Assembly (NCBI GenBank): GCA_946894095.1
Contig: OX335647.2
Span: 10,000,001 to 10,064,000, forward strand
Length of the DNA: 64,000 bases
Source: Incurvaria masculella
Lineage: Eukaryota > Arthropoda > Insecta > Lepidoptera > Incurvariidae
Direction of reading: 5' to 3'
Shown: in pieces, positions 30,547 through 55,490 of the stretch
Position numbering within the stretch: the stretch's first letter is position 1
How the letters are laid out: each line of letters begins with the position of its first letter
The notes under the pieces: generated by a model
What the model was told of the DNA's origin: nothing
The model's database searches: none
What the model saw: only the letters and a program-made list of their open reading frames with translations
Position numbers and translations under genes: made by a program

Positions 30547-30926
30547 TCAAGACAGGAGGTCCTGTCGAATGGACTGCTGCTGTATCTCGTGCATGGTCGC
30601 AGCCGGGAGGGTTGCGCTGACAGTAATAGGGGGCATCCCCGGAAGCGAGATGGGCGTCATTACAGGAATGCCACTGGGCGGGAGAGGAGCATCCGGGGAA
30701 GGCTGCATGGGCATTTGTGCAAAACTACTAACATCGAAGGTGGGTATTAGGGGCTGGGCTTGGGGGTCCGGATTGACTGGCGGCTGGCGGAAGTTTGGCA
30801 TCATTGGGATGTAGGGCTGCGGCTGGTTCATGGGGAGGCCGGGCAGGCTGGGGAGCGGTGCGGGGGGCTGCATACTGCTCACGGATGGTATGCTCCCGAG
30901 ATTTGTGAGTGCAGCATCTGCAAAGC
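30547..30926 (-). CDS. GORASP2: GRASP exon 5 (C-terminal tail)
   Basis: Acceptor TCTCTTTGCAG ending at 30927; codon A|GC gives Ser. Encodes a Pro/Met/Gln-rich tail ([17 protein letters not shown] and similar) ending [11 protein letters not shown] with stop at 30549-30547. Confidence 0.9.
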
Positions 30927-33900
30927 CTGCAAAGAGAATCACCTTTGAATATTGATTCATATCGTCTCTGATTTTAAGAACGAGTTACAGATTTAAAAAC
31001 AATAAGTTTTAGAATTTATACAAAAATTAGTTTATAATTAAGCCCTTATTAAGGGCAACTTTCAACTTCTGATCAACGGCGACCGTCAGAGACCACGTTT
31101 CACACCCGAACGTCATAACCAGAATATTAGTTCAATGAAAATAAGGTTACCACGTGTAGGTAACTTTTATGTAATTTGGTTGTCAGCCCCAGACAACCTG
31201 ACACAGAGGCTCAGGATGCGTGACCGTCCGACCGTGGTGGCTGGCCGTGGTTCATATTAGGTCCCCCTTTCTTACTAAGAAGTAGAGTTAGTACCATCAC
31301 ATTAAATTAAAGATGGGTCGAAGCGATTAAAAAGCAAGGCGCTAGTTCCCATGACATGACTAGCTCCTTCAGGAATGCAGTTCGTTGGTCTAATATCATG
31401 ACAGGTGTGGTAATAGCCATTCATGTCCAGTCACTTAACAGTGACTCTTTTCAATTACTATCCATATCGTTGGCAAGTCAAACAAATGTGAAATTGATAT
31501 TGGATGTTGAATTTAAGGTGGCCCTTCCCGTCGGGACAAACTCATTCGCAGGCATGGTACAAATCCGTGCTATTGCGCTCTGGGACCTTCTTTGTTTCAA
31601 ATAAAAAGACAGGCTCTGTGATAAGGAGCATGCAACATGTCCACAAAGCAGATAATGCGCATAGTGTTTGATTTGATATGATTCACTAAATTTTTTATTA
31701 CAAAACGACTTATAGCAGTAAAAGTAAATCATGACCGCTGTAGTCAAAAATCAAACAAAAACCTAATTGATTAAAAATATCCATGAAATAAGCTAGGTCT
31801 GATGACTAATATTTTTAAGATGTTTTTATTTTATCGTTGAGTAATCCGCCTGCAAAGTTATTTTACAAAACATGCGAAAAAATCGAACTTTAGGAAAACC
31901 AAACAATATTTTACAATGCCAATGGTCATCGGACATCGAAGTCGATCAAATAAAGTTGTTCAAAACAATTTTGGATCTCTGACAAGAAATATGCGGATGA
32001 TCTTCTTTCCACGTTTGTATGGGGACTTGAGCGGGAAGGCCCACCTTAACAGAAGCATATAATAATTAGACTTACTGCTCGAAAATGATGCAGCAGCAGC
32101 AACAAATGACTGAGGCGGTGCACTCGGTGCTGTATAGACTCCATTGCTCGCAACACTGGATGGAGCAATGCTTCCAGGGTTCGTAACTCCAGGAGTAGAA
32201 TAGTTTCCTTGAGACGTATCACTGGGAGCGGCATAGTTTCCAGGGTTCACCATTGGGACTCCGGACAGGAAAGGCGGTGGGGGGTGCTGTTGAGATGGCT
32301 CCCCAGGCAGACCGGACCCCTGGTAGCTGGGCACTTGACTAACTGGTTGATTGTCACTTAACCTCAAATTTTGTATTCCTGAGGCAACATTTGGTTGAGA
32401 ACTGGGTACTTGAGATGATGGAATCTAAAACAAACATTATTATAAACAAACACATATGGCATAATTTTATCATATAAAAAGATTTTCAATGGGGACGATC
32501 AAAGTTTGAAAAGTTATAGCCCCATTTTGTTCAAGGAACATCTGTCAAGGGGCAATGACCAAAATAATACGAAATGGATGATTATAATACTTCATACACA
32601 TAATTCTTCTCTTTCATGGAATGTTATATGTATGTATGTTTAATCGACCGTGAAGCAAGGACGCATTAATTGGAGAAAGAGCCCAATAAAAAGAACTACT
32701 TTACAAATATACTGCAAGGCTGGACCCGAACCAGCAAAACATACCTTTTGCGGGTATTGCATCTGTCAATTTTGCCCCCGGCTGTATACATATAATTTGG
32801 AATTCTCCTGTAGAATTTGAAATTATGGGTATAAGCGGGTAGCGGAATTAGTAGACCCGGCTATAGTACTACTGACCGGCTTACTTGACCAACCTTGCAG
32901 TATATTCATACAGTATTTTTTTTTGCAATTTTTCTTTCATTATCTTTAAGGAATGTAGGACACTCACGGTTGATTCTGTATTCATATCAAATTCGTAAGA
33001 TTAAGAAGTTACATGGATGTGTTCTGATCTACACATGTGATCTATTGTATTTATTTGTATTTGTTGGCAACATTAACCAACAAATATAACATTTTTGTAT
33101 ATTGCAATATTATAATGTGATTATGGCTGTTATACATATTTCTTTAATTATATTAAACAAGTGTTCTAAGCAGTTACGTCTTCCACATTATCATACCACG
33201 CCTCAATGTCATCGAGCTACAATTACGAACTCCTACAGTATTTAATGTATTGGTCACATGACAAAGAAATGCCGTTCTTTAAAAGTTTAAGAGTGCCCCT
33301 GTAAATGTAACTAAAAATGCTCTACATATACCTTCCTCTTTTTTTTCTATTTATTCAGACAATCAAACTCACCGAAGCAGACACAGGTGATGGGAACTGA
33401 ATAGTTTTATGCTCTGGAAAACTTCTAATCGGAATCCTATGCAGGTAACCGTAACCAATTCCGCAGCCCATGCTTCCCTCACCACCCCATTGGAGATTTG
33501 GTGTGATGGTGACCTCACGGCACGAGTCCTCACTCGTGTTGTACACGTACAGCTTGAGCGGGCGACCCTCGTTGTGTTCAATGAGAGTGAATAGGTCCTC
33601 CGACTCATTCATCACTGAGTCCGCTCCGATTATGTAGTCACTGAAGGGCTTCAGGCCTGCCATCTCTGCCGGGGAGGATGGATGGACCTCCTGGAATTAC
33701 AGCAGATTTTGTTTACATTGCAAACAGTTGTGCCAAGGAGCCACTGCCCTTTCACTATTTCTTTACCAAAATTATTTTTTAAAGCTTAGCTTGGCCTGTC
33801 GCGCGGGAGCCTTGAACATAAGGTTACTTAGATAAACACGATTTTATGCCTCATCCCGCTACTAAGACTACATTTAAAAATCAATATAGGAGGAAACATT

Positions 33901-34567
33901 TTGTTATGTCAATCAATAACTACCCCGGCGTAATAAAGCATTTACACATGCTCAGTCCTGTCAAATACTGCTAACTCTCTGATAAAAAGAGGGAGGATAA
34001 ACACAATGCGCTTATGTGACTATTAATAGCCCACTAATGTGTAGTCATATGATTATCAAACAAGTATTTTACGTATTGTGTATCTGATTGTGGGGTCCAA
34101 TGGTAAACATAATTAAGCATAGATATACAACAGAGGAACTAACCAGTATATGCCAAACATTCTCGTTAGCTCCCTCGAAGGAGCAGAAGCGGATGCTTAC
34201 GCCGAGTAGGCCTTGACCACCCCATGACGCGCTTGGGGTTATGTTGACTTCGCGCACCTGCTGAGTTTTGCTGCTGTATACAAGCATTTTTATTTTCGTC
34301 TCAACGTGTTTTTTGAGGAGCTCCTTTAACGTGTCGTTATCCTGGTCCAGTCTAGTGTTCTCTATTGCCACTATGAAGTCGAAGAATGCTTCAAGCCCAG
34401 CGATTTGGCCAGGCGAGCCGTCCTGAACCTAGAAACATAAATTTGTTTGTAAAGAAGCACCAAACAAAATAAAAAACATTAGTCTAGTATCATGCCCTGC
34501 TCACCCGAAGAACATGGTAACCCTCTGAGCCGCCCCCGGGTACCTCAGTACTGTGGGACGTCCCCAT
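30547..34567 (-). CDS. GORASP2: Golgi reassembly-stacking protein (GRASP55/65 family), 5 exons
   Basis: Coding exons in transcript order: 34567-34505, 34428-34144, 33690-33373, 32424-32076, 30926-30547. They total 1395 nt, 464 codons plus stop, in frame throughout. GRASP proteins tether Golgi cisternae by trans-oligomerisation of the N-terminal GRASP region (two PDZ-like folds) and act in unconventional secretion. The start is M-G-T-S-H-S: Gly-2 is the expected myristoylation site. PDZ1 is about residues 15-105 ([33 protein letters not shown]), PDZ2 about 118-208 ([39 protein letters not shown]). Residues 209-464 are the Pro/Ser/Gln-rich tail typical of the family. Insects usually carry one gene for the two vertebrate paralogs, so GORASP1 versus 2 is not meaningful here. 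Minus-strand AATAAA at 30429-30424. Confidence 0.95.
31043..31120 (-). pseudogene. Short RTE-type LINE relic in GRASP intron 4
   Basis: GGCAACTTTCAACTTCTGAT and CACGTTTCACACCCG..CGTCATAACC match the relic at 4848-4915; the minus strand reads [15 protein letters not shown]. Only the C-terminal motif survives. Confidence 0.75.
31340..31445 (-). repeat. Dispersed repeat family D copy, reversed
   Basis: GCTCCTTCAGGAATGCAG, TCTAATATCATGACAGG and ATAGCCATTCATGTCCAGTC are the reverse complement of family D words. Confidence 0.6.
31513..32049 (+). mobile_element. TTAA-bounded non-autonomous DNA transposon, copy 5 (537 bp, diverged)
   Basis: TTAAGGTGGCCCTTCCCGTC at the left and CGGGAAGGCCCACCTTAA at the right. 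More mutated than the other copies and slightly shorter. It lies in GRASP intron 4 and ends 26 bp from the exon 4 boundary. Confidence 0.9.
32076..32424 (-). CDS. GORASP2: GRASP exon 4 (Pro/Ser/Gln-rich linker)
   Basis: Acceptor TGTTTTAG, donor GTAAGT at 32075-32070, phase 1 out. Encodes a low-complexity tail with repeated NPGNY/NPGSI-like segments and PPP runs. The frame stays open into the adjacent transposon (31513-32049), but the donor ends the exon 26 bp before it. Confidence 0.88.
32640..32865. mobile_element. SINE-like repeat in GRASP intron 3
   Basis: ACTGCAAGGCTGGACCCGAACCAGCA and TTGCGGGTATTGC match 54756-54960. The minus strand contains GCTGGTTCGGGTCCAGCC, close to a tRNA box B, suggesting a tRNA-derived origin. 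GCATTAATTGGAGAAAGAGC and GTATACATATAATTTGGAAT extend the match on both sides. Confidence 0.7.
33373..33690 (-). CDS. GORASP2: GRASP exon 3 (second PDZ-like domain, residues 117-222)
   Basis: Acceptor TAATTCCAG, donor GTGAGT, phase 0 both sides. Encodes [19 protein letters not shown] and [13 protein letters not shown], nearly invariant across animals. A methionine inside the exon is not the start, since exons 1-2 are intact. Confidence 0.96.
34144..34428 (-). CDS. GORASP2: GRASP exon 2 (first PDZ-like domain, residues 22-116)
   Basis: Acceptor TGTTTCTAG, donor GTTAGT, both phase 0. Encodes [19 protein letters not shown] through ENVWHIL. The [14 protein letters not shown] motif is the core of the first GRASP PDZ. 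Confidence 0.95.
34505..34567 (-). CDS. GORASP2: GRASP exon 1 (residues 1-21)
   Basis: Short exon with 21 codons: ATG at 34567-34565, then [20 protein letters not shown], and donor GTGAGC. It matches the family N-terminus (G-S-S-x-S... [12 protein letters not shown]). The ATG context reads CGCGATATGGGG; any 5' UTR lies at higher coordinates. Confidence 0.92.
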
Positions 34568-45560: not shown

Positions 45561-45816
45561 GTGGAATGAGCCGAGACAGCTCAGAAGAGAGGACTCAAAT
45601 GAGCTAAAGGCAGCCACAATGGGGGAGTGGCGGCCGTTGATTTCCGAGTGGCTAACGGAGTACGCGGCTCTGCAGGAGTCCGAGATTCGCAGTTTTGCGG
45701 CAGAACACGAGCATAACCACGAGATCGCGGCCGCCGTGCACGGCCTGCTCTGTGATGAGAGCCATGGCGACACCAGTTCTAACAGCAGTTCAGAATCCAT
45801 TGATCAAAATAGTCAG
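45561..45816 (+). CDS. FAM126A: Hyccin exon 1 (5' UTR 45561-45618, residues 1-66)
   Basis: ATG at 45619 in a good context (CCACAATGGGG). The frame is open upstream to 45535, but that part precedes the acceptor. MGEWRPLISEWLTEYAAL aligns with the hyccin start. It ends in a Ser-rich stretch (SSNSSSES) before donor GTGAGG; phase 0. Confidence 0.85.
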
Positions 45817-48800
45817 GTGAGGCGTCTACTACTATGAATACCTACTTCTACTACTACTTACTCGTACTAAAACGCTTCGATCTTCGCCCGGGGAGCCAAG
45901 AAGCCATTTTAGGAGGTACAGCTAAGTAATATTTAACTTAAATTCAGCATTATGTGAATATATTTCACAAAAGCACACCCATTAATTAGGTGCGGCTTAG
46001 TAAAGACGTTTCTCCCCTTATCATTTTGTAAAGAAAGAAAGTTCATTCTTGTCTTATAAATAGTTTTTTTATATGAATCAACATTGGCAGTTGCATTTAG
46101 ATCTAAGTATGTATTTCATAATTGTGGACGGAAAAATATGTTATGTAAACCCGTGAAGTTTCTTTGCGGGTTCTTCTTTACTGGGTTGATCGAATCTGCG
46201 GATCTTTGTGACGTAACTTGGTGTAGTTTGACTACCAAAAAGTTTAAATAAATGAAATGAAATGAAACATGAAATTACCTACGATTATCAAACCTACTAT
46301 CATGCTATCACAACACATTACAATGGCCAAATGGTATGGCATGAAAATGCTAAACCTATTTTCATTGCCGTGTGGACCATCTTTCATATAATGCGAGTAT
46401 AGCAACCCATGCGGGCTATGCAGTGTAGAAACCCTACTGCCTACAGGCTCGTAAGAAAGCCTACAGTCTTTCATGGGTTCCGAGTCATAGTTTTAAATGT
46501 TTCTTAACTGAACCTTATGTAAATAGATAGATGGTGGAATAGATTCATTACCCTATCAATTCCCCATACTATGGGTGATAACTGTTTTCATGCTCTTAAT
46601 GTTTTACTAGGTTTTTGAAATTTTTGATTCGAAAATATATTGTCAAAGTCTATGCCTGTATGTTTAGATTTTTCTAATAAACCTTTAATGTTGGAAGATA
46701 TTTACTTATTTATTACTTGATTTATTATATTGATTTATTATTTCGAAAATAGTTGTCTTAAAAAATTAAAACATCTAGGCAAAGAATGAAGCTTTCTCAA
46801 ATAATTTTAAAAAATATATTAAACTCTGACAACTTTTGCATGGCATGGAAGACGATTTCGTTAGTTTAATGGCAGTCGCTGTGCAAAATTGTGCCTTGGC
46901 CAATGCATCAAGAAAGCATTTTGCTAAAGATAAATCGCACCCGAAAACATTTCCTAACAAACAGAGTTGTGGATAATTGGAACGGCCTACCTGAGGAAAT
47001 AATAAGTGCATCGTCAGTAAATGTTTTCAAAAACCAACTGGATCTTTACTTAAAATAAAAAATATATATATAAATAAAAAAAAATTATAAAAAAAAATTC
47101 ATAGACAATAAATAAATAAATAAGTGCAAGTACTTAAAAACAAAAGTGCAAGTGCATAAAAAGAAGTGCACATTATTTACAATATAATTACATGCATGCA
47201 TTACAATATAATAATAATAATAATAAACATTTTAAATATTTGATTTCCGCTGCCTTCACGGCAGCCTTAAGAAACGTGATATCAATAAATTGGGATGTTT
47301 CTAAATACAACTTCCTTGCACAATTATCACGTAAGCATTTCTCTGGCAGCTGCTGGAGCAAGTGTGCGTGCAGCTGTTCAGCTTCTACCGGTCCCGCGAG
47401 GTGGAGCTGCAGCGGTTCTGCCTGCAGTTCCTGCCCTCGCTCGTGAGCACCTACCTCAGCTCGGTTGCGCGCGGCGACAAGAAAACCTGCCGCTGCATCG
47501 AAACCCTCCTCATAGGTGCATTGGCTTACCATCTTAAAACAATTTCGATAATAACTTCCAATTATAACTCAACAAGTGACGTCACAGGCAGTTTTCTTTT
47601 CAATTATTATGCCACAGTTTGGAGTGTGCGTTAACTTCAGTTTTGTTAAATGCCTATTGATCTTTATAATTAATAACGACTATGTCATAATATCATAACG
47701 GTAGTTGTGTGGTATTAGCCATCCATATCAGGTCGCTTAAAAAAAATGTCCAGCAAGTGTTTTTGCTTGTTTGAAAGAAAGCAAGAAATTGCATTGCATA
47801 CATGTCAATGATTACATAGTAACGTAAAGTATTTTTATGATTTTGTTCATGTAAGAAATCTTGTTTTTTTTTTCAGGGCTGTACAATTTTGAAGTTGTAG
47901 ATGAATCCGGTAAACCCAAAGTAGTTTCATTTAGATTACCATCGTTGGCACAGGCCTCTATTTATCATGAGGTGAGTTACTTTCTTCCACATTTATTACA
48001 CCAGTAGCGAATAATATACCTTTTAGGTACCTATCAGATTGTATCATGTGTAAATTTAATTCAATACAAGTATGGAAAATAGTATTCCAAGAATCCTATA
48101 CTTTACTGTTTTCCCTTAAGACAGTCGTTACCCTAACAATTCACCATACTTTGGACGATAACTGTTTAAATGTTTTAAACATTTTACTAGGTTTTTTTTT
48201 TAATTTTGAATTCTAAAATATATTGTTAAAACGTACATCTGTATGAAAATGAAAATATTAACTAATAAACATTGGAAAAATGTGGTCTTTTTTTTACAAT
48301 GTTTATTTTGTTCATTCTAGTTTAAGTTTTTTTTTTACTGTGAAATACAGATATTTACACATAAATACAAACATGGACATATAATCAAGTTTTCAAAGGT
48401 GATTAAACATTTTTAATTAAAATCTGAAAAGATCATTTTAGGGGTAGGGAAACGTTAGGGTCTGGAAGACTATTTCGCAAGTTTTATTCGTAATTGGTGT
48501 GCAAAAGTGTGTCTTGGCCAATTGACATAGAGAGCATTCCTTCAAATTTCGAAATCTCAGAGCCCCGTTTACTTCACGATGAACCACTGAACAACGGTTC
48601 AGTTGAATGTGGTAACTTTACAGCCACTGTCGCTAGCACCCCAGTTTCTGACGGAGAGTGCGCTACGGCGCTGGGAGGAGTGCAACACGAAGCTGGTGAG
48701 CTGGGGCCCACTGCCGCAGGTGGAAGCCCTCAACGCACAGAACCGTCTCAAAGTCATGACTGCGCTGCTCTTTGTCTACAATCGGCAGCTAAGCTTATTG

Positions 48801-51800
48801 CCTAGAATGGCGTTAAGACACCTCTGCACGGCCGCATCTAGGTAAATTATTTTTTTATAATTAGGTTTTAATTTTATATCTTTGTGCATTTTGGGTTTAA
48901 ACTAAGTTTAAACATAAGGTTAGGTTTAGATGAAGATACTGAAGAGAACATTGTTTACGCACCTTCTATAATTAGGATATTTCATGGTGCTGGTGTATCT
49001 CGTGTGGATTGGTATCGTCCCAAATCCAACGAATTTGTTTTTTTTTTTCAAAAATGGGCCTCTTCGCTGCAGATGATTTTTTTAGTAAAATTTTTGACCG
49101 ATGTCCAACTGCCATTTCTCAAACAGAGCACTGATTTTGTTTGATGCTATAACCTTTCATTGTGATTTGTCATATACTGCTGAACAATTCACAACAAATG
49201 TGACGGATGTTGTTTTAACAAAATGGCCAGTGCTGTAACATTTAAAATTTGTATCGTCCATTAAAAGACCTTTTAGAACCTTTATTTTTAAAAACGATAA
49301 CAAATAAACTTTATAAAAGTTTAAGAAATAAAAAAGACATATTTTTTAGAAACGAAATATGTACTTTTTTTTCAAAGTTTTGATAGGACTTTAGCCGCAT
49401 TGCGGTTATGCCAGTCCCATAGTAACTATTGTCACAGTTGTAAGGTCTCCCTAACCTTTTAAAGCTAAAGAGGCCTTAAAAAATTGTATTAATGTTTTAC
49501 AATTTTGAGATGGTGATTGCGATAATGCATAATCAATTCCGAAAAAATAGTTGTAAGCATCTAACTTCAATTTGTCCATTAATTTTCGCCTCAGTGGTTC
49601 GTTCTGCACACACTCTATCAAAATGTGAAATTGGTCTTCAGTCTTATTACATACATTACAATTAGGTGAATCCATTTTTCGCATCAGATAGGCACTTTTA
49701 TTTAGTGGAGTGTGTCCTGATCGGAGTCTTAAAGTAATTACAATGTCAGTGCGGGAGAGACCTGAGCTTTCGAACCATGGTCTTCGAAGCGGCTCATCTT
49801 GGAGAGTCTTGTACTAAATGCCCGTCTCCACCGATCTCCTGTCAAAGTGCTCTTTCCATTTAGTGCTACAGAATTCCTTAGCATCCGTCAAAAGATCTCT
49901 AACGAAAGGCTTACATGTCCAAGTATTGTCACAATTCACTGCACTTTTTGCTAACTTGTCAGCCCGCTCGTTGCCTTCTAAGCCAATGTGATTATTGCGG
50001 CCTCAGTGAAAAAAAGACCAGTAAGCAACTACAACAGTCCATTTAACGTCAATTTTACAGTTAAGGTATATCTATGCTTAGTTAATGACATAAGAAGAAA
50101 GAAGACTGATACTTTATAAACATAACATTGGACAGAGATGGTGCTCTCCAGCCTTAATAATATGTATTACCTGCAGGATAGTAACGCAAGGGTTCGCACC
50201 GACTAAAACAGCGAGCAGCGCGGGCAAGCCGACGCCCCGGATCCCTGTGTCCTCCGGCTTTCTGCTGGAGCTCGTGCACGGTGCCTACTTTGCCATGTTC
50301 AACGAGTTCTACACACTGGCACTGCAGACCGTCACCGACGTGGACCGCCGCGGCAGCTACGAGGTACTGCCCGACGTCATGCTGGTCACCGGTGCCGTCC
50401 TCAACTCCCTGCACTGCAACCCCTCGGGTAAGTCAATTACATTTTTTTATATGGATAACCGCAATTACTTGCAGCGACAGTTTAAACTTATCAAAGTAAT
50501 CATTTGGTTTATAGACTTAGAGGGTTAATATCACTCTTAATGTCATGATCTGCACCTAAGCACCTCATTGAAAATAGATGCCATGACCTTCGCTACATTG
50601 CATGGCTACTTCAATGTCAATAGAAAACGCGGACAATTGTCATGGCCACTTCAACCATCATCATTCAAAACGAGGGTACAAACTTGGACATTATTAACCC
50701 TGCGATCAGTCCCCTACTTACTGATGGGACAGTTTAATGTTGAAATTGAACCACAAAGGACAAATCCCTAAGTCGCCTTTCACGATATGTACAGAAAGAA
50801 CTGCCGAAGGCCCGCTTGTATTATTTTCACTTGCCGGAACCCACACAGAACATTCAACCAATTTGTTAAAGAAAGAATATGGCACAACAGGGCAGCCGTG
50901 CGACGGGCCCATGGGCATCAGTGTGGCGCTCTCACCTGCCACCACCACGCTCACCGTCTCCAAGTCTATGATCACCAACGCCTCATTCCGTACCAAGAAG
51001 CTGCCAGGTGAATTTATCCCACAATTTGGAATGACAGTTTGCCTGGAAATAACATGTATAGAGGTGTCTTGGAACGAACATCGTAGTAGTGTAACAGTTA
51101 TATTGTATGTTTCAACTGATATGAATTACTAAATTATCTCAACTGAGTACAAAAATTTTTTGCCGTTAACTTCATTAATGGAAAAACACGTAAATCACAT
51201 CATTTGAGACTGTCTAGCCTGATGTATGACGCATTAATTTGAGAAATCAAGAATTAATATTTTTTCGACTGTGTAGCCTTTTTTCCTTCAACAGATTGTA
51301 GATTGCCTTTTTGATCTATTGGTTAGACTGCCTTTTTTTATCTTTTGATTGAATTTATGATGAATTTTATTGATGCTTGCATTCTGGAAACATGCATTGA
51401 AAAATGATTAAGTTCAATTTACGTTGAATACCAATTTCTGTGTTATAAGAACTGCAACATTCAGATTACACGTCACAGGATAAAAATAAATATGTCAGAC
51501 AAATTTTACTGTTAATACTGCTAATGTATTTTAGTGACGACATTACCATTTACCAATACTTTCGTTTTAAAGTGTTTATCCATTTTGTTGATTGCTTAGC
51601 ATAGACCTAATATTGATGTTAGCAGATTTATATGAATTTATTTATAGGATGCCATTCCACTGGCTCATCTCACTGGAAGTGTTGCTGATGGTTGTGATAA
51701 TTGTTCTAACCATTATATCACTAGCTCATTATTGAAGGTCTCTACCATCGCTCTATTCACAAACGATATTTGTGAGATGGTTTGCAGACATTGTTCAAAG

Positions 51801-54800
51801 TTACAAAGCTTGTCTTGTTATAATGAATTAAGCTCTATCATGTTAACATTTTAAAATATTTACATCTTTGAATATATTCTTTTTTAAATACCATCTACAC
51901 ACTTTATTTTTCTGGCTTCCGTTCGGTCAATATCGACCGAGGGTTTTTCGCCATAATCGACCTTATTGCCTAAGTCGAAGGAAGGTCGATGTTGTCAGAA
52001 ATGATGGTGAGAAAATCTCCTTATTAAAAAGGAAGAAAGACATAAAAATATGTCATGCGAAAAAAATACCTTAGGGAAAGTAAGGATTAAAGACTAGCAA
52101 GACATTTGCAATCTGTTGTCTACGAAATTAATTAGCACTGCATCTCTTAAGGGCCTTGACTCATCAACAAAGGATAGTACCAAGTCTATGGTCACTATTA
52201 CATATCATTTCTCAATGCATCCATCCGGCTATAGAACCGTAGTTCATAATGTTCCGACAATAAATTGTCACACAGCTAAACTGTATAACAGATGAATGCG
52301 GTAATTTTTGCATGCTGCCAAATGAATGTTATTGGCCAGACGATCTCGAGGTAGAGTTGTGGAGTAGGCACGGGGTGGGGGCGGTGGCGGGGGTACACGA
52401 CGTGCCCTCGCTGCTGCACCTGGCGCCGTGGCTCCATGCGCACCCCGGACACTGGCACCTGCCTCTGTGGAAGCTCCCCGCCGAGGACACCATCTCGGAG
52501 AGATCTGAATGTTCCTCGTGCGATATTGAAGAGGGTTTGGAGGGTTACGTGAAGCAATACATTCCCAAGTTTCTTACGGAGAGGGGGCTGCCCGATTGAA
52601 TTAGCGAATGACTGACCCTATAAAGATGCTTAGGTACGGTCTTGGATAAAATCTAGGTACGGTCATGGATAAACTTTTTATGAACACACGCACCTACAAG
52701 TTATTTTATTGGTTTTTCTCACATTAAGAGCTCTAAAGGTCGAATCTGAATAATTTTAACCATACAAGTCCGACCTTGGATTCCTGTCTCACATCGTCAG
52801 TCAGAAATCTAATTCATTATTATTATATAGCTGAAAATGTGTTGTTTGCTATTATGTTAACGCACAGGAAGCACACATTTTGCTATATCTTTTTTCACCT
52901 TTTCGGAATTAATGTTTGATACAAATTTTGATACAAACCAATCCCTTAATGACATAGATCTTTTTCTTTAAAAAGTATTAAAATGTTTCTTCACAATTCA
53001 GAGCCATTGAAAACTATTATCCTAGAACAACGTTGATATTTAGGATAGTCGAAATCTTCCTTACAACGCTCAGTATGACTGTGAAAGTCGGTTATGTTAC
53101 GCTGATAATTCGATGGTTTACATGGTTTATACGATAGTGGTCAGAGTTTACATATAATATACATAAAATAGAGTACTACATATCTAGTACTAGAGTACTA
53201 TAACAAAATTCATAGCATTTGTTATTTTTATTCATTTTAACTTATGAGTTATTTATGCACAAAATTGTGCTACGAAAACTAGACTAGAATAACTCATTTT
53301 TGTATAGGACTGATGCAGAACAAACTTGCAAAAATTTAAATTTTTACAAGGTGAATTTTACAAAGTTTACAATTAAATCGTCTCCACACAAATTTCATTG
53401 TTATTGCTTCATTATAGTCCAAACACAAGTTATCTTTCTATTATGAGTACATTCTAACACATGGAAGTAAATGGATAAAGGTATTCTATTGCATTATTAT
53501 TGTTGGATATCCATTTAATTCATAATTTGATGTGCTAATAAAGGACTGTTAACGATCCGACCATGCTGCATGCTTCGCAGGGTTCATGAATATTTCTTAG
53601 TTTTCAATCACACAAGTACTATACTGTATTATAAATGGCATCTCAAGAGTATACATAAATCATAAATTATTATGAGTTATAAAGCATTTTGAACAAAACA
53701 TTTATTTAAATTTTTCCCCTTTAAAATTAATAAAATAATTCATAACAAATGTTATGATTTTAACGGCAACAACATACCGTGCACACTTTTTTCCGTGGGA
53801 AACGAATTGTATCAATTTCTCCATTAGGGATCCTTCATATACTACGTGATGGATTTTGGGGGCAGAGGTCCAGCTCTCGGTCTCGTCCGGCTTTTCGAAT
53901 AGTTGTGTAAAATTACATTTTATGAATGCCCCGTAACTTGGGAAGGGGGTCACGGGCGGTCACCTAACCATAGAGGGAGGGTCCAAAATGCACTAAAATC
54001 CGTCACGTAGTTTACGAACGGTGCATCTCTCACAGGATCAATAACATTTTAACATCCTTATGTCACAAAACACATTCCTAATGGAACCCGAAATCTAAAA
54101 TCGTCAAATACATTTCCACACAATCGATCAGCATGCCATTAATCTCATATTCAATCTGCGAGAATGTGTTCAAAGAGTACAGACACACACACTGCCATTC
54201 GACTTTTTAAATACTGGCGCTTTAGTTGGTACATTTATTGTTTGCAGATAATTCGCCCCAAAGTAGCTGACACGTGTCGGCATGATGTGTGTTTGTGCAT
54301 GCTCTCTTAGTTCACTAAAGCAAAAGCAAGGTACCCCACACTTGGTTTACCGAGTAGCGCACGTAGACTTGTTGCTTGACACAAACCTGTGTTTTGTCTA
54401 TTGTAGATCTGTCTTTATGTTAGTTTTTTCATATTTGTGGTGGTAGATATGTACATTGTAGCATTACGTGCGGACACAGTGAATCGCATGGATCTGTTTA
54501 TTCTTGCCGTGTCAGCATTTATGTGGTATGGTTGATACTCATAATCCCATTTCGATTATATTCCTGTCATTAACGTAGGATTTTCCTGATTTTTATATTA
54601 AAACTTGCAATTTATAAAATATGTATAAAGACAGTATTTTTTTCTCCTTGATAAATATGTCTTGTGGAATAAAATGAAAATGATTTTGATGCTTCACATT
54701 TAAAAATTATATGTATTCCTACTGATAAATTTACCACTTTTAAGGAATATATGTATGTTGGAGCAAGGGCACATTAATAAAAGAAATAGTCCAGTAAAAA

Positions 54801-55490
54801 TAACTTCTTTACGAATATGCTGCAAGGCTGGACCCGAACCAGCAGAACATACCATTCGCGGGTATTGCGTATTCCAATTTCACCAGCTGCTGTATACCCA
54901 TAATTTGGAATTCTCCTACAGTCCCTCCTCCCGTAATCAATGCCTCCTACTAACACAGTGTTTAAGATTATACCTACATAAATTTATTTAACGCTTCATC
55001 TGCGTTGCGGATACATTGAAAACTGAGAATAGTTTTAGTAATCGTGCGGGCGTGTATTGCAGACGATATTCCGATACAAGCGGGCGCGGTGGGCGGGGTG
55101 GCGGCGGAGGGTTCGGACGCGCTCGCCAGCATCACGGAGGAGGCGGAGACGGAGTCGGCGGGCGTGCAGCGCGGCGGCCTGCGCTCCTCGAAGCCCAAGC
55201 TGCCCGGCTTCCCGGGCCTCGGCAAGAAGGCGGTCAAGCAGCGCGTGACGCTGAAGGAGGCGCGGACCGGCAGCCGCAGCTCGCTGGGCGGCGGCGAGGC
55301 GGGCGAGGGGGGCAGCCCGCCGCCGCCGCCGCGCCGCGCCGCCGAGCTGCTGCTCGAGGCGGAGAGGAACGGCGCCGCCGGCGAGGCGAGCGAGTCGCTC
55401 GAGAGCTCCGACGCGCTCTCGCACATGACGAGCGACTCGCTCGAGCTGGAGACGCCGCGGCTCGCCACCATGCAGGTGAGCTCCGTCTGA
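45619..55490 (+). CDS. FAM126A: Hyccin (FAM126 family), with two alternative last exons
   Basis: Shared exons: 45619-45816, 47350-47515, 47877-47971, 48624-48841, 50177-50427, 50795-51007. Then either 52292-52599 (482 aa) or 55063-55490 (522 aa); all joins keep frame. Hyccin stabilises the PI4KIIIalpha-TTC7-EFR3 complex that makes PI4P at the plasma membrane. Family landmarks: WLTEYAAL near the start (human hyccin has EWLSEFKTL there), LFSFYRSREVELQRFCLQFLP, GLYNFEVVDESGKPKVVSF, LTESALRRW, LNAQNRLKVMTALLFVYN and [17 protein letters not shown]. Residues 1 to about 310 are the folded hyccin domain; the rest is variable, as in other animals. An acceptor at 45560 (TTACCCGCAG) shows that the first coding exon has an upstream 5' UTR intron. 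Confidence 0.94.
46540..46925 (+). repeat. Interspersed repeat family E, copy 2
   Basis: CCTATCAATTCCCCATAC, GGGTGATAACTGTTTTCATG, CTAGGTTTTTGAAATTTTTG, AAATATATTAAACTCTGACA, GGCAGTCGCTGTGCAAAATT, GCCTTGGCCAATGCATCAAG. Confidence 0.8.
46921..47058 (+). pseudogene. LINE RT C-terminal end in hyccin intron 1
   Basis: Plus-strand text NRVVDNWNGLPEEIISASSV NVFKNQLDLYLK ends at a natural TAA (47056-47058) and is followed by an A/T-rich tail. This pattern (VVxxWNxLPxxVVxAxSVNxFKxxLD) is the C-terminus of CR1/jockey-type RT. Open in frame here, so relatively young. Confidence 0.85.
47350..47515 (+). CDS. FAM126A: Hyccin exon 2 (residues 67-121)
   Basis: Acceptor TTTCTCTGGCAG, donor GTGCAT, phase 1 out. 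Encodes LLEQVCVQLFSFYRS through CIETLLI, matching human LLEPVCHQLFEFYRS ... CIEALLLG. Confidence 0.94.
47700..47752 (-). repeat. Dispersed repeat family D end, reversed
   Basis: GTGTGGTATTAGCCATCCAT..CAGGTCGC is the reverse complement of the family D start (ATGGATGGCTAATACCACAC). Confidence 0.6.
47877..47971 (+). CDS. FAM126A: Hyccin exon 3 (residues 122-153)
   Basis: Acceptor with a run of T ending TTTCAG; donor GTGAGT. Encodes GLYNFEVVDESGKPKVVSF and SLAQASIYHE, matching the GVYNLEIVDKQG and SVYHE motifs of vertebrate hyccin. Only splice-aware reading shows it. Confidence 0.93.
48125..48545 (+). repeat. Interspersed repeat family E, copy 3
   Basis: CCCTAACAATTCACCATACT, GGACGATAACTGTTTAAATG, ACTAGGTTTTTTTTT, AAAATATATTGTTAAAACGT, ACGTTAGGGTCTGGAAGACT, GTCTTGGCCAATTGACATAG. 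It ends about 80 bp before hyccin exon 4. Confidence 0.75.
48624..48841 (+). CDS. FAM126A: Hyccin exon 4 (residues 154-225)
   Basis: Two in-frame acceptors exist. I chose TTTACAG ending at 48623, because PLSLAPQFLTES then aligns ungapped with human PSSIGSMALTES; the other (CACCCCAG ending at 48638) would drop five residues. Encodes LNAQNRLKVMTALLFVYN. Donor GTAAAT; phase 2. Confidence 0.9.
48842..50176. other. FAM126A: Hyccin intron 4
   Basis: Holds the RNase H-bearing LINE relic (49440-50010). Otherwise AT-rich; ORF 48884-49144 has no domain. Confidence 0.6.
49440..50010 (-). pseudogene. LINE relic with RNase H and C-terminal zinc-finger region
   Basis: On the minus strand: HIGLEGNERADKLAKSAVN, the conserved HxGxxGNExAD motif of RNase H; then TDIVITLRLRSGHTPLNKSA, and CNVCNKTEDQFHILIEC, the CCHC finger typical of R1/I/jockey-type elements. 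It has at least one stop and a frameshift and lacks the RT. Confidence 0.85.
50177..50427 (+). CDS. FAM126A: Hyccin exon 5 (residues 226-309)
   Basis: Acceptor TTACCTGCAG; codon AG|G gives Arg. Encodes [20 protein letters not shown], almost identical to the vertebrate [20 protein letters not shown]. Donor GTAAGT; phase 1. Confidence 0.94.
50795..51007 (+). CDS. FAM126A: Hyccin exon 6 (residues 310-380)
   Basis: Acceptor GATATGTACAG; codon G|AA gives Glu. Encodes GPMGISVALSPATTTLTVSK and TNASFRTKKLP, equivalent to the ITPTSSRISRNAVTSMSIR region of human hyccin. Donor GTGAAT; phase 1, shared by both downstream exon choices. Confidence 0.88.
51008..52291. other. FAM126A: Intron before hyccin exon 7a
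   Basis: AT-rich; no repeat or exon recognised. Exon 6 donor and exon 7a acceptor bound it. Confidence 0.5.
52292..52599 (+). CDS. FAM126A: Hyccin alternative last exon 7a (residues 381-482)
   Basis: Acceptor CTGTATAACAG ends at 52291. Joined to exon 6, the split codon G|AT gives Asp and 102 open codons follow to TGA (52597-52599). The encoded tail begins DECGNFCMLPNECYWPDDLE: four Cys in the first 15 residues. It then has His/Trp-rich text (HLAPWLHAHPGHWHLPLW) and ends YIPKFLTERGLPD. I do not recognise this tail. GC content is well above the flanks, as in real exons here. Candidate poly(A) signals: ATTAAA near 52977, AATAAA at 53537-53542. Confidence 0.7.
52600..54755. other. FAM126A: Region between the two alternative last exons of hyccin
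   Basis: Probably 3' UTR of the short isoform at first (poly(A) candidates near 52977 and 53537), then intron. No coding signal; ORF 53702-53953 on the minus strand has no domain. Confidence 0.45.
54756..54960. mobile_element. SINE-like repeat, second copy
   Basis: CTGCAAGGCTGGACCCGAAC, CGCGGGTATTGCGTATTCC and TGTATACCCATAATTTGGAA match 32640-32865. Lies about 100 bp before hyccin exon 7b. Confidence 0.7.
55063..55490 (+). CDS. FAM126A: Hyccin alternative last exon 7b (residues 381-522)
   Basis: Acceptor GTGTATTGCAG ends at 55062; codon G|AC gives Asp, then DIPIQAGAVGG and a disordered tail rich in Gly/Ala/Ser/Glu with PPPPPRR, to TGA at 55488-55490. The exon is extremely GC-rich. The last codons read ATG CAG then GTGAGC: a perfect donor motif (CAG|GTGAGC) sits nine bases before the stop codon. 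The exon may therefore sometimes splice onward to an unseen exon. Confidence 0.82.

What the first reader, a model, noticed from the sequence alone, without database searches (positions are those of the whole stretch)
51001..55490. Hyccin has two mutually exclusive last exons with matching phase and unrelated tails
Exon 6 ends in phase 1. Both the acceptor at 52291 (split codon G|AT) and the one at 55062 (G|AC) restore Asp and open 102 or 142 codons to a stop. One tail is Cys-, His- and Trp-rich and compact-looking, the other is Gly/Ala/Ser/Glu-rich and disordered. In vertebrates the hyccin C-terminus is variable and regulatory. An isoform switch could change how the PI4-kinase complex is tethered. 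The Cys cluster (four Cys in 15 residues) hints at metal binding or lipidation, which is inference only.
Basis: partly seen in the sequence, partly recalled or inferred. Interest (0 to 1): 0.75.

Follow-up and report, generated by a model that had tools for sequence, protein, structure and literature searches.

The report
Moth hyccin gene's alternative last exon
A moth gene for hyccin, a helper of a membrane-lipid kinase, most likely has two interchangeable endings, one of which removes a conserved tail; the second ending sits in the same slot as an alternative segment in flies, bees and ants.

Summary
The two candidate last exons exist as described: exon 6 ends in phase 1 at 51007, and acceptors before 52292 and 55063 open 102 and 142 codons. 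Tail B (DDIPIQ...QVSSV) is the canonical insect hyccin tail. Open-frame length alone is not unusual (45 of 300 simulations). Comparison supports tail A. Plodia interpunctella 'hyccin isoform X2' has MLPNEC at the same distance from the junction; 52292 fits it best of 181 intron AGs, and 0 of 20,292 random AGs do as well. Of 165 fetched hyccins, 33 (Diptera, Hymenoptera) carry an alternative segment in the same slot, mostly starting KKLP|DDL(E/D). The window has an in-frame acceptor 48 nt inside tail A (52340) encoding KKLP|DDLEVELW, again unmatched in 20,292 random AGs, and coding-like composition begins there. Best reading: an old, fast-evolving alternative last exon whose acceptor was extended upstream in moths. 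Including it removes the disordered tail and its PDZ-ligand-like end. Metal binding and a compact fold are not supported: three Cys in 11 residues, not four in 15; one shared with Plodia; low-confidence models. No RNA was available; later parts of tail A match nothing outside moths; function is inferred.

The parts
45619..45816 (+). hyccin coding exon 1 (start codon at 45619)
   Evidence: the protein model aligns with insect hyccins over its length
47350..47515 (+). hyccin exon 2
   Evidence: PF09790 match
47877..47971 (+). hyccin exon 3
   Evidence: PF09790 match
48624..48841 (+). hyccin exon 4 (start corrected from 48645; the added 21 nt encode PLSLAPQ, matching PLSLGSQ/PLSLGPQ of relatives)
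50177..50427 (+). hyccin exon 5
   Evidence: PF09790 match
50891..51007 (+). hyccin exon 6, ends KKLP + G (phase 1), donor CAG|gtgaat
   Evidence: KKLPD present in 162 of 165 fetched relatives
52292..52599 (+). tail A: alternative last exon, 102 codons and stop (DECGNFCMLPNEC...ERGLPD); acceptor placed as in the Plodia isoform
52340..52599 (+). shorter form of tail A from an in-frame downstream acceptor: KKLP|DDLEVELW..., 86 codons, matching the alternative-segment start of Diptera and Hymenoptera
52977..52982 (+). ATTAAA; among the candidate poly(A) hexamers after tail A (others include AATAAA at 53537 and 53729)
   Evidence: pattern only
55063..55490 (+). tail B: canonical last exon, 142 codons and stop (DDIPIQ...MQVSSV)
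55473..55487 (+). codons of the conserved C-terminal QVSSV, PDZ-ligand-like; also holds a donor-like CAG|GTGAGC (intron side from 55476)

Best explanation
The hyccin gene of this moth has an alternative last exon (tail A, 52292 or 52340 to 52599) placed before the canonical last exon (tail B, 55063-55490). Splicing exon 6 into tail A, with cleavage and polyadenylation before 55063, gives a 450-residue (or 434-residue) hyccin that keeps the kinase-scaffold core but lacks the disordered-looking tail B and its conserved QVSSV end. Skipping tail A gives the 490-residue canonical form. The slot is old: Diptera and Hymenoptera hyccins have an alternative segment starting KKLP|DDL(E/D) there, at the end of the protein or inserted before DIPI. 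In the moth lineage the acceptor moved, or a second one arose, 48 nt upstream, turning former 3' splice-site sequence into 16 codons that include MLPNEC; the older acceptor (AG|AC at 52340) may still work. Shown here: the exons, phases, open frames, junction-near conservation, and hyccin matches at this one locus. Inferred: real splicing, acceptor choice, ancestry of the rest of the exon, and the effect, which I expect to be loss of a PDZ-type or phosphorylation-controlled contact of the PI4KA complex rather than gain of a folded domain.
For: Tail B in 40 of 42 Lepidoptera-like hyccins, all 40 ending QVSSV. Plodia isoform X2 (P0041) tail: shared MLPNEC and LW, same 7-residue spacing from the junction; local score 52, reached by 2 of 5000 shuffles; acceptor 52292 top of 181 intron AGs, 38 versus 14, 0 of 20,292 random AGs; exon A is also the best of 2173 window ORFs to the Plodia tail, though only at E 0.078, next 3.3. 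Same-slot alternative segment in 33 of 165 fetched proteins, by name 15 Diptera and 18 Hymenoptera, 18 terminal and 15 with DIPI following. Acceptor 52340 scores 16.1 for that start; next of 181 intron AGs 5.0, next of 3112 window AGs 12.9; 0 of 20,292 random AGs and 0 of 398,960 positions in any frame. GC by codon position for codons 17-102 is .67/.42/.76, core .57/.45/.73. One match to tail A in the genome and five PF09790 matches, all at this locus (lower bounds by the tool's own note). No donor scoring above 3 inside tail A. 130 of 140 proteins with a DIPI or DIPV tail end in [ST]x[VIL].
Against: No RNA data. Only 1 of 42 Lepidoptera-like proteins has tail A; MLPNE occurs in P0041 alone of 165 fetched; a search with the window tail scored none of 48 candidates, and with the Plodia tail the 120 listed of 312 show no other. 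Both acceptors are weak by recalled generic weights: -1.1 and -1.5, ranks 49 and 51 of 174 intron AGs (55063 ranks 38). The same weights give a real hyccin donor (47516) -0.21, so absence of a donor above 3 in tail A does not exclude its use as an internal exon. The first 16 codons lack a coding-like pattern (.44/.44/.31). Beyond its DDLEVEL start tail A is not detectably like the Diptera/Hymenoptera segment: profile scores -0.6 to -2.8 bits with shuffles up to 1.0, hhalign probability 0.6%, while those orders find each other in 8 of 15 and 11 of 18 cases at E below 0.01. The DDLEVE likeness was noticed by eye before it was scored.
Confidence: 0.74

Rival explanations
1. The working acceptor in this moth is 52340 only. 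The real product is KKLP|DDLEVELW..., and 52292-52339 is intron (3' splice-site region) that resembles the Plodia model by common descent of DNA that is not coding here. (This rival changes the acceptor, not the claim of an alternative last exon.)
For: Start of the Diptera/Hymenoptera type at 52340; coding-like base composition begins there, while the first 16 codons do not show it.
Against: Six identical residues MLPNEC at the same distance from an AG in Plodia and here. By hand from its protein, Plodia has no residue with a G-first codon at the equivalent spot, so it cannot start there.
Confidence: 0.3
2. Tail A is a decaying remnant of the old alternative exon, spliced rarely or not at all in this species.
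For: Little similarity to Plodia after residue 24, weak acceptors, no trace of the later motifs of the Diptera/Hymenoptera segment; one lepidopteran database isoform among 42.
Against: Frame intact for 102 codons with codon-position GC like the core in codons 17-102; conserved junction-near block with Plodia.
Confidence: 0.17
3. 52264-52599 belongs to an unrelated nested gene or mobile element and only looks joinable to hyccin.
For: It is an island of higher GC in an AT-rich intron, and the frame stays open upstream of the acceptor to 52264. A DNA-level repeat search of it could not be run.
Against: Plodia carries the related tail on a hyccin protein; the tail has one protein-level match in the genome; no Pfam match.
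Confidence: 0.05
4. A metal-binding or lipidated Cys cluster in tail A re-tethers the complex.
For: Three Cys in the first 13 residues; palmitoylated Cys in an alternative tail are known in another protein, calcineurin A-beta-1 (PMC8523714, passages).
Against: Cys3 is His and Cys7 is Ser in Plodia, only Cys13 is shared; no confident fold.
Confidence: 0.05

Closest known systems
Plodia interpunctella hyccin isoform X2 (P0041, NCBI-named)
   Same: Same core and same junction KKLP|D; tail with MLPNEC at the same distance, LW, similar length (81 versus 102 residues).
   Different: Little identity after residue 24; no DDLE block; two of the three N-terminal Cys absent.
Diptera and Hymenoptera hyccins with the KKLP|DDL(E/D)... 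segment (e.g. Neodiprion X3 P0110, sandfly X2 P0099, Aedes P0119)
   Same: Same slot between the KKLP exon and the DIPI tail; DDLEVEL start available from acceptor 52340; terminal in 18 of 33.
   Different: Their W.WK, SIEEE/SSP and SAGARLY blocks are not detectable in the moth tail; 15 of 33 have DIPI following, for which tail A shows no good donor.
Vertebrate hyccin / FAM126A C-terminal tail
   Same: Disordered regulatory tail after the structured core; the solved hyccin chains match only core residues 62-318 or 62-297 of the model.
   Different: A PxIxIT-type motif like its calcineurin-binding PSISIT (PMC8523714) is absent from tail A, tail B, the Plodia tail and the B tails of P0001-P0040 (0 of 40).
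Alternative last exon genes controlled by ELAV/Hu proteins in Drosophila neurons (PMC8055025, passages)
   Same: Proximal and distal last exons.
   Different: Hyccin is not mentioned in that paper's main text (0 occurrences); regulator of the moth exon unknown.

Membership tests
Hyccin / FAM126 (PF09790) | PF09790 match over the curated cut-off | tested here: met
Hyccin / FAM126 (PF09790) | Canonical insect tail DIPIQ...QVSSV | tested here: met
   Tail B; 40 of 42 Lepidoptera-like relatives
Alternative last exon | Shared upstream donor, two acceptors in the same phase, separate stop codons | tested here: met
Alternative last exon | Own cleavage and poly(A) site after each exon | tested here: inconclusive
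   AATAAA/ATTAAA hexamers after both; no chance expectation was computed
Alternative last exon | Both junctions present in RNA | not testable with these tools
   No reads held; for tail A only a protein model in another species (P0041)
Insect KKLP|DDL(E/D) alternative hyccin segment | Same slot and phase, DDL(E/D) start at an acceptor | tested here: met
   Acceptor 52340; post hoc test; its use is not shown
Insect KKLP|DDL(E/D) alternative hyccin segment | Profile similarity over the rest of the segment (W.WK, SAGARLY) | tested here: not met
   Tail A below zero bits, shuffles reach 1.0; best of 2173 window ORFs E 1.4. I therefore do not file tail A as a full member, only as the same slot with the same start
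Zinc-binding Cys/His module | Conserved Cys/His ligands | tested here: not met
   Of the three N-terminal Cys only Cys13 is shared with Plodia; Cys3 is His, Cys7 is Ser there; one comparison only
PDZ ligand, class I (definition recalled) | C-terminal [ST]-x-[VIL], conserved | tested here: met
   130 of 140 proteins with DIPI/DIPV tails; binding itself not tested

The most novel reading that the evidence does not exclude
Insects have carried, since before flies, wasps and moths split, a C-terminal switch in hyccin that removes or displaces a conserved PDZ-ligand tail and so changes where the PI4KA complex is held. In moths the switch exon was rebuilt by moving its acceptor 48 nt upstream, turning old splice-site sequence into new conserved protein (MLPNEC), while the old acceptor stays usable, giving three hyccin ends from one gene.
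Probability: 0.3. Interest if true: 0.6.

Novelty: new variant of a known kind. Interest (0 to 1): 0.42.

Why it matters
How the hyccin C-terminus regulates PI4KA is open: in vertebrates the tail is disordered, binds calcineurin and is reported to inhibit the kinase by an unknown mechanism (PMC8523714, passages). A natural insect isoform that swaps out the tail would give a direct genetic test of what the tail does. The two acceptors in one exon would also be a clean case for watching splice-site sequence become protein.

Tried and rejected
Open-frame length as evidence: rejected, 45 of 300 simulations do as well. Compact or metal-binding domain: no Pfam match for either tail at E up to 10, two chance-level PDB matches (E 0.57 and 0.77), low-confidence models. 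A separate SAGARLY-type exon elsewhere in the window: best of 2173 ORFs has E 1.4. Homology of the whole of tail A to the Diptera/Hymenoptera segment: not detected, with a positive control that works for 8 of 15 and 11 of 18 segments. Tail B running on into further exons through CAG|GTGAGC: not favoured, since all 40 moth-like B tails stop at QVSSV and some other insects have QIS endings, which cannot be GT; two models do diverge there. The phage search, the bacterial promoter scan and the RNA family search gave nothing useful. One search used wrong exon boundaries; one search mended them except exon 4, so the full-length proteins given to lack 7 residues of exon 4 (found). I found no paper on insect hyccin last exons in the listings (1 to 20 rows shown of up to thousands; subscription papers are not held).

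Full report
What is there. The window lies in a 552 Mb, 31-contig genome whose hyccin is closest to moth and butterfly hyccins: the 42 best of the 120 listed of 511 hits. The hyccin gene runs on the + strand in exons 45619-45816, 47350-47515, 47877-47971, 48624-48841, 50177-50427 and 50891-51007, then tail A (52292-52599) or tail B (55063-55490). Exon 4 starts at 48624, not 48645 as in my first model: the extra 21 nt encode PLSLAPQ, matching PLSLGSQ or PLSLGPQ in relatives. The core scores 358.5 bits against PF09790, and the five PF09790 matches listed for the genome all lie at this locus (counts being lower bounds).

Tail B. Of the 42 best Lepidoptera-like proteins (35 with names I know as lepidopteran, 7 unnamed), 40 have KKLPDDIPIQ and all 40 end QVSSV. 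Of 165 proteins fetched have a DIPI or DIPV tail and 130 of these end in [ST]x[VIL]: QVSSV 74, QVSQV 28, QISSV 8, QVSTV 7, QISQV 7 and rarer forms. By a recalled definition that is a class I PDZ ligand. Binding was not tested, and a literature search for FAM126A with PDZ listed no paper that by its title or abstract start concerns such binding (20 of 22 listed). The last codons also form a good donor by recalled weights, CAG|GTGAGC. Two models, P0106 and P0158, leave the shared sequence just after the Q, so splicing there may occur in some insects.

Tail A by comparison with moths. The two of 42 without tail B are Diatraea P0042, which appears to run into the intron, and Plodia isoform X2 P0041. 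The Plodia tail, DDHETLSMLPNEC...KLW, aligns with DECGNFCMLPNEC...ELW without gaps for 27 residues (score 52; 2 of 5000 shuffles reach it). Read in phase 1 from each of the 181 AGs of the intron, 52292 scores 38 against the first 13 Plodia residues, the next 14. In 200 kb of the same genome (20 stretches, both strands) the best of 20,292 AGs scores 22. Without the anchor at the junction the signal is weaker: among 2173 window ORFs exon A is the best match to the Plodia tail but at E 0.078, the next at 3.3. A database search with the window tail scored none of 48 candidates at E 10 or below. One with Plodia residues 322-425 gave 312 proteins, 120 listed; the next best after itself has 38 bits against 225, and MLPNE occurs in P0041 alone of the 165 fetched. 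Annotated tail A is therefore rare, 1 of 42. A moth tail-A protein with a full core should have scored near P0041 (545 bits) and been listed, whose list ends at 399 bits; partial ones would be missed.

Tail A by comparison with other insects. 33 of the 165 proteins (by name 15 Diptera, 18 Hymenoptera) have another segment after KKLP, starting DDL(E/D), in one DDIE: 18 end without DIPI, 15 have DIPI following. These are database models; their transcript support was not checked. Inside tail A, 48 nt in, CCAG|ACGATCTCGAGG reads KKLP|DDLEVELW in the same frame. With a profile of the 14 distinct 8-residue starts this site scores 16.1; the next of 181 intron AGs scores 5.0 and the next of 3112 window AGs 12.9. 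None of 20,292 random AGs and none of 398,960 random positions in any frame reaches it. Of 17 AGs inside tail A, three are in frame. I saw the likeness before scoring it, so the test is post hoc. GC at codon positions 1, 2, 3 is .67/.42/.76 for codons 17-102, similar to the core (.57/.45/.73), but .44/.44/.31 for codons 1-16.

Against. The rest of tail A does not match the Diptera/Hymenoptera profiles: tail A is at -0.6 bits with the joint profile and -1.3 to -2.8 with the separate ones, shuffles reach 1.0 (200 made, Diptera profile only), and hhalign gives 0.6% probability, aligning just the DDLEVEL stretch. The Hymenoptera profile gives 8 of 15 Diptera segments E below 0.01 and the Diptera profile 11 of 18 Hymenoptera segments (E for 1000 sequences). 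Acceptor scores with recalled weights are weak: 52292 ranks 49 and 52340 ranks 51 of 174, though a real hyccin acceptor, 50891, scores lower. Length of the frame is not evidence. Structure prediction of tail A alone has mean pLDDT 51.5; the Plodia tail, with a 28-sequence alignment that holds no other such tail, is near 32. No RNA was seen.

Reading. I take tail A to be a real alternative last exon with probability about 0.74, in a slot shared with flies and wasps. Which acceptor is used is open: 52292 has the Plodia evidence, 52340 the older start and the coding composition. The simplest history is an upstream move of the acceptor in moths. Tail A has no donor scoring above 3, so inclusion probably ends the message there, with the caveat that one real hyccin donor (47516) scores only -0.21. 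The product keeps the core seen in solved hyccin structures (9b9g and 5dse over residues 62-318, 6bq1 over 62-297 of the model) and loses tail B. In vertebrates the tail is disordered, binds calcineurin through PSISIT and is reported to inhibit PI4KA in vitro (PMC8523714, passages); a PxIxIT-type motif is absent from tails A and B, the Plodia tail and 40 of 40 moth-like B tails, so that particular contact is not what the moth exon switches. A tail swap in insects is likely to alter regulation or placement of the complex rather than its assembly; this is inference. ELAV/Hu control of proximal versus distal last exons in fly neurons (PMC8055025, passages) is one possible regulator, untested; hyccin is not named in its main text.

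Not found in print. Searches (listings with abstract starts only) showed no paper on insect hyccin last exons.

Noticed in passing
55473-55490: The conserved C-terminal QVSSV is encoded by CAGGTGAGCTCCGTC, which is also a good donor by recalled weights; two other-insect models (P0106, P0158) diverge exactly after the Q.
   Followed up: partly
52180-52195 and 50960-50975: 15 of 16 bases of exon 6 (CCAAGTCTATGATCAC) recur about 100 nt upstream of tail A; probably chance, but could be a remnant of an exon 6 duplication.
   Followed up: no
49451-49813: Minus-strand ORF inside a hyccin intron with a Cys/His stretch like the end of a retrotransposon reverse transcriptase (by eye).
   Followed up: no
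30547-34428: Minus-strand ORFs resembling GRASP-type PDZ domains and a Pro-rich tail (by eye).
   Followed up: no
P0094, P0100, P0119 (mosquitoes), P0130, P0134, P0139 (ants): In these models the alternative hyccin segment is followed in frame by DIPI rather than ending the protein, so the slot may change between insert and ending.
   Followed up: partly
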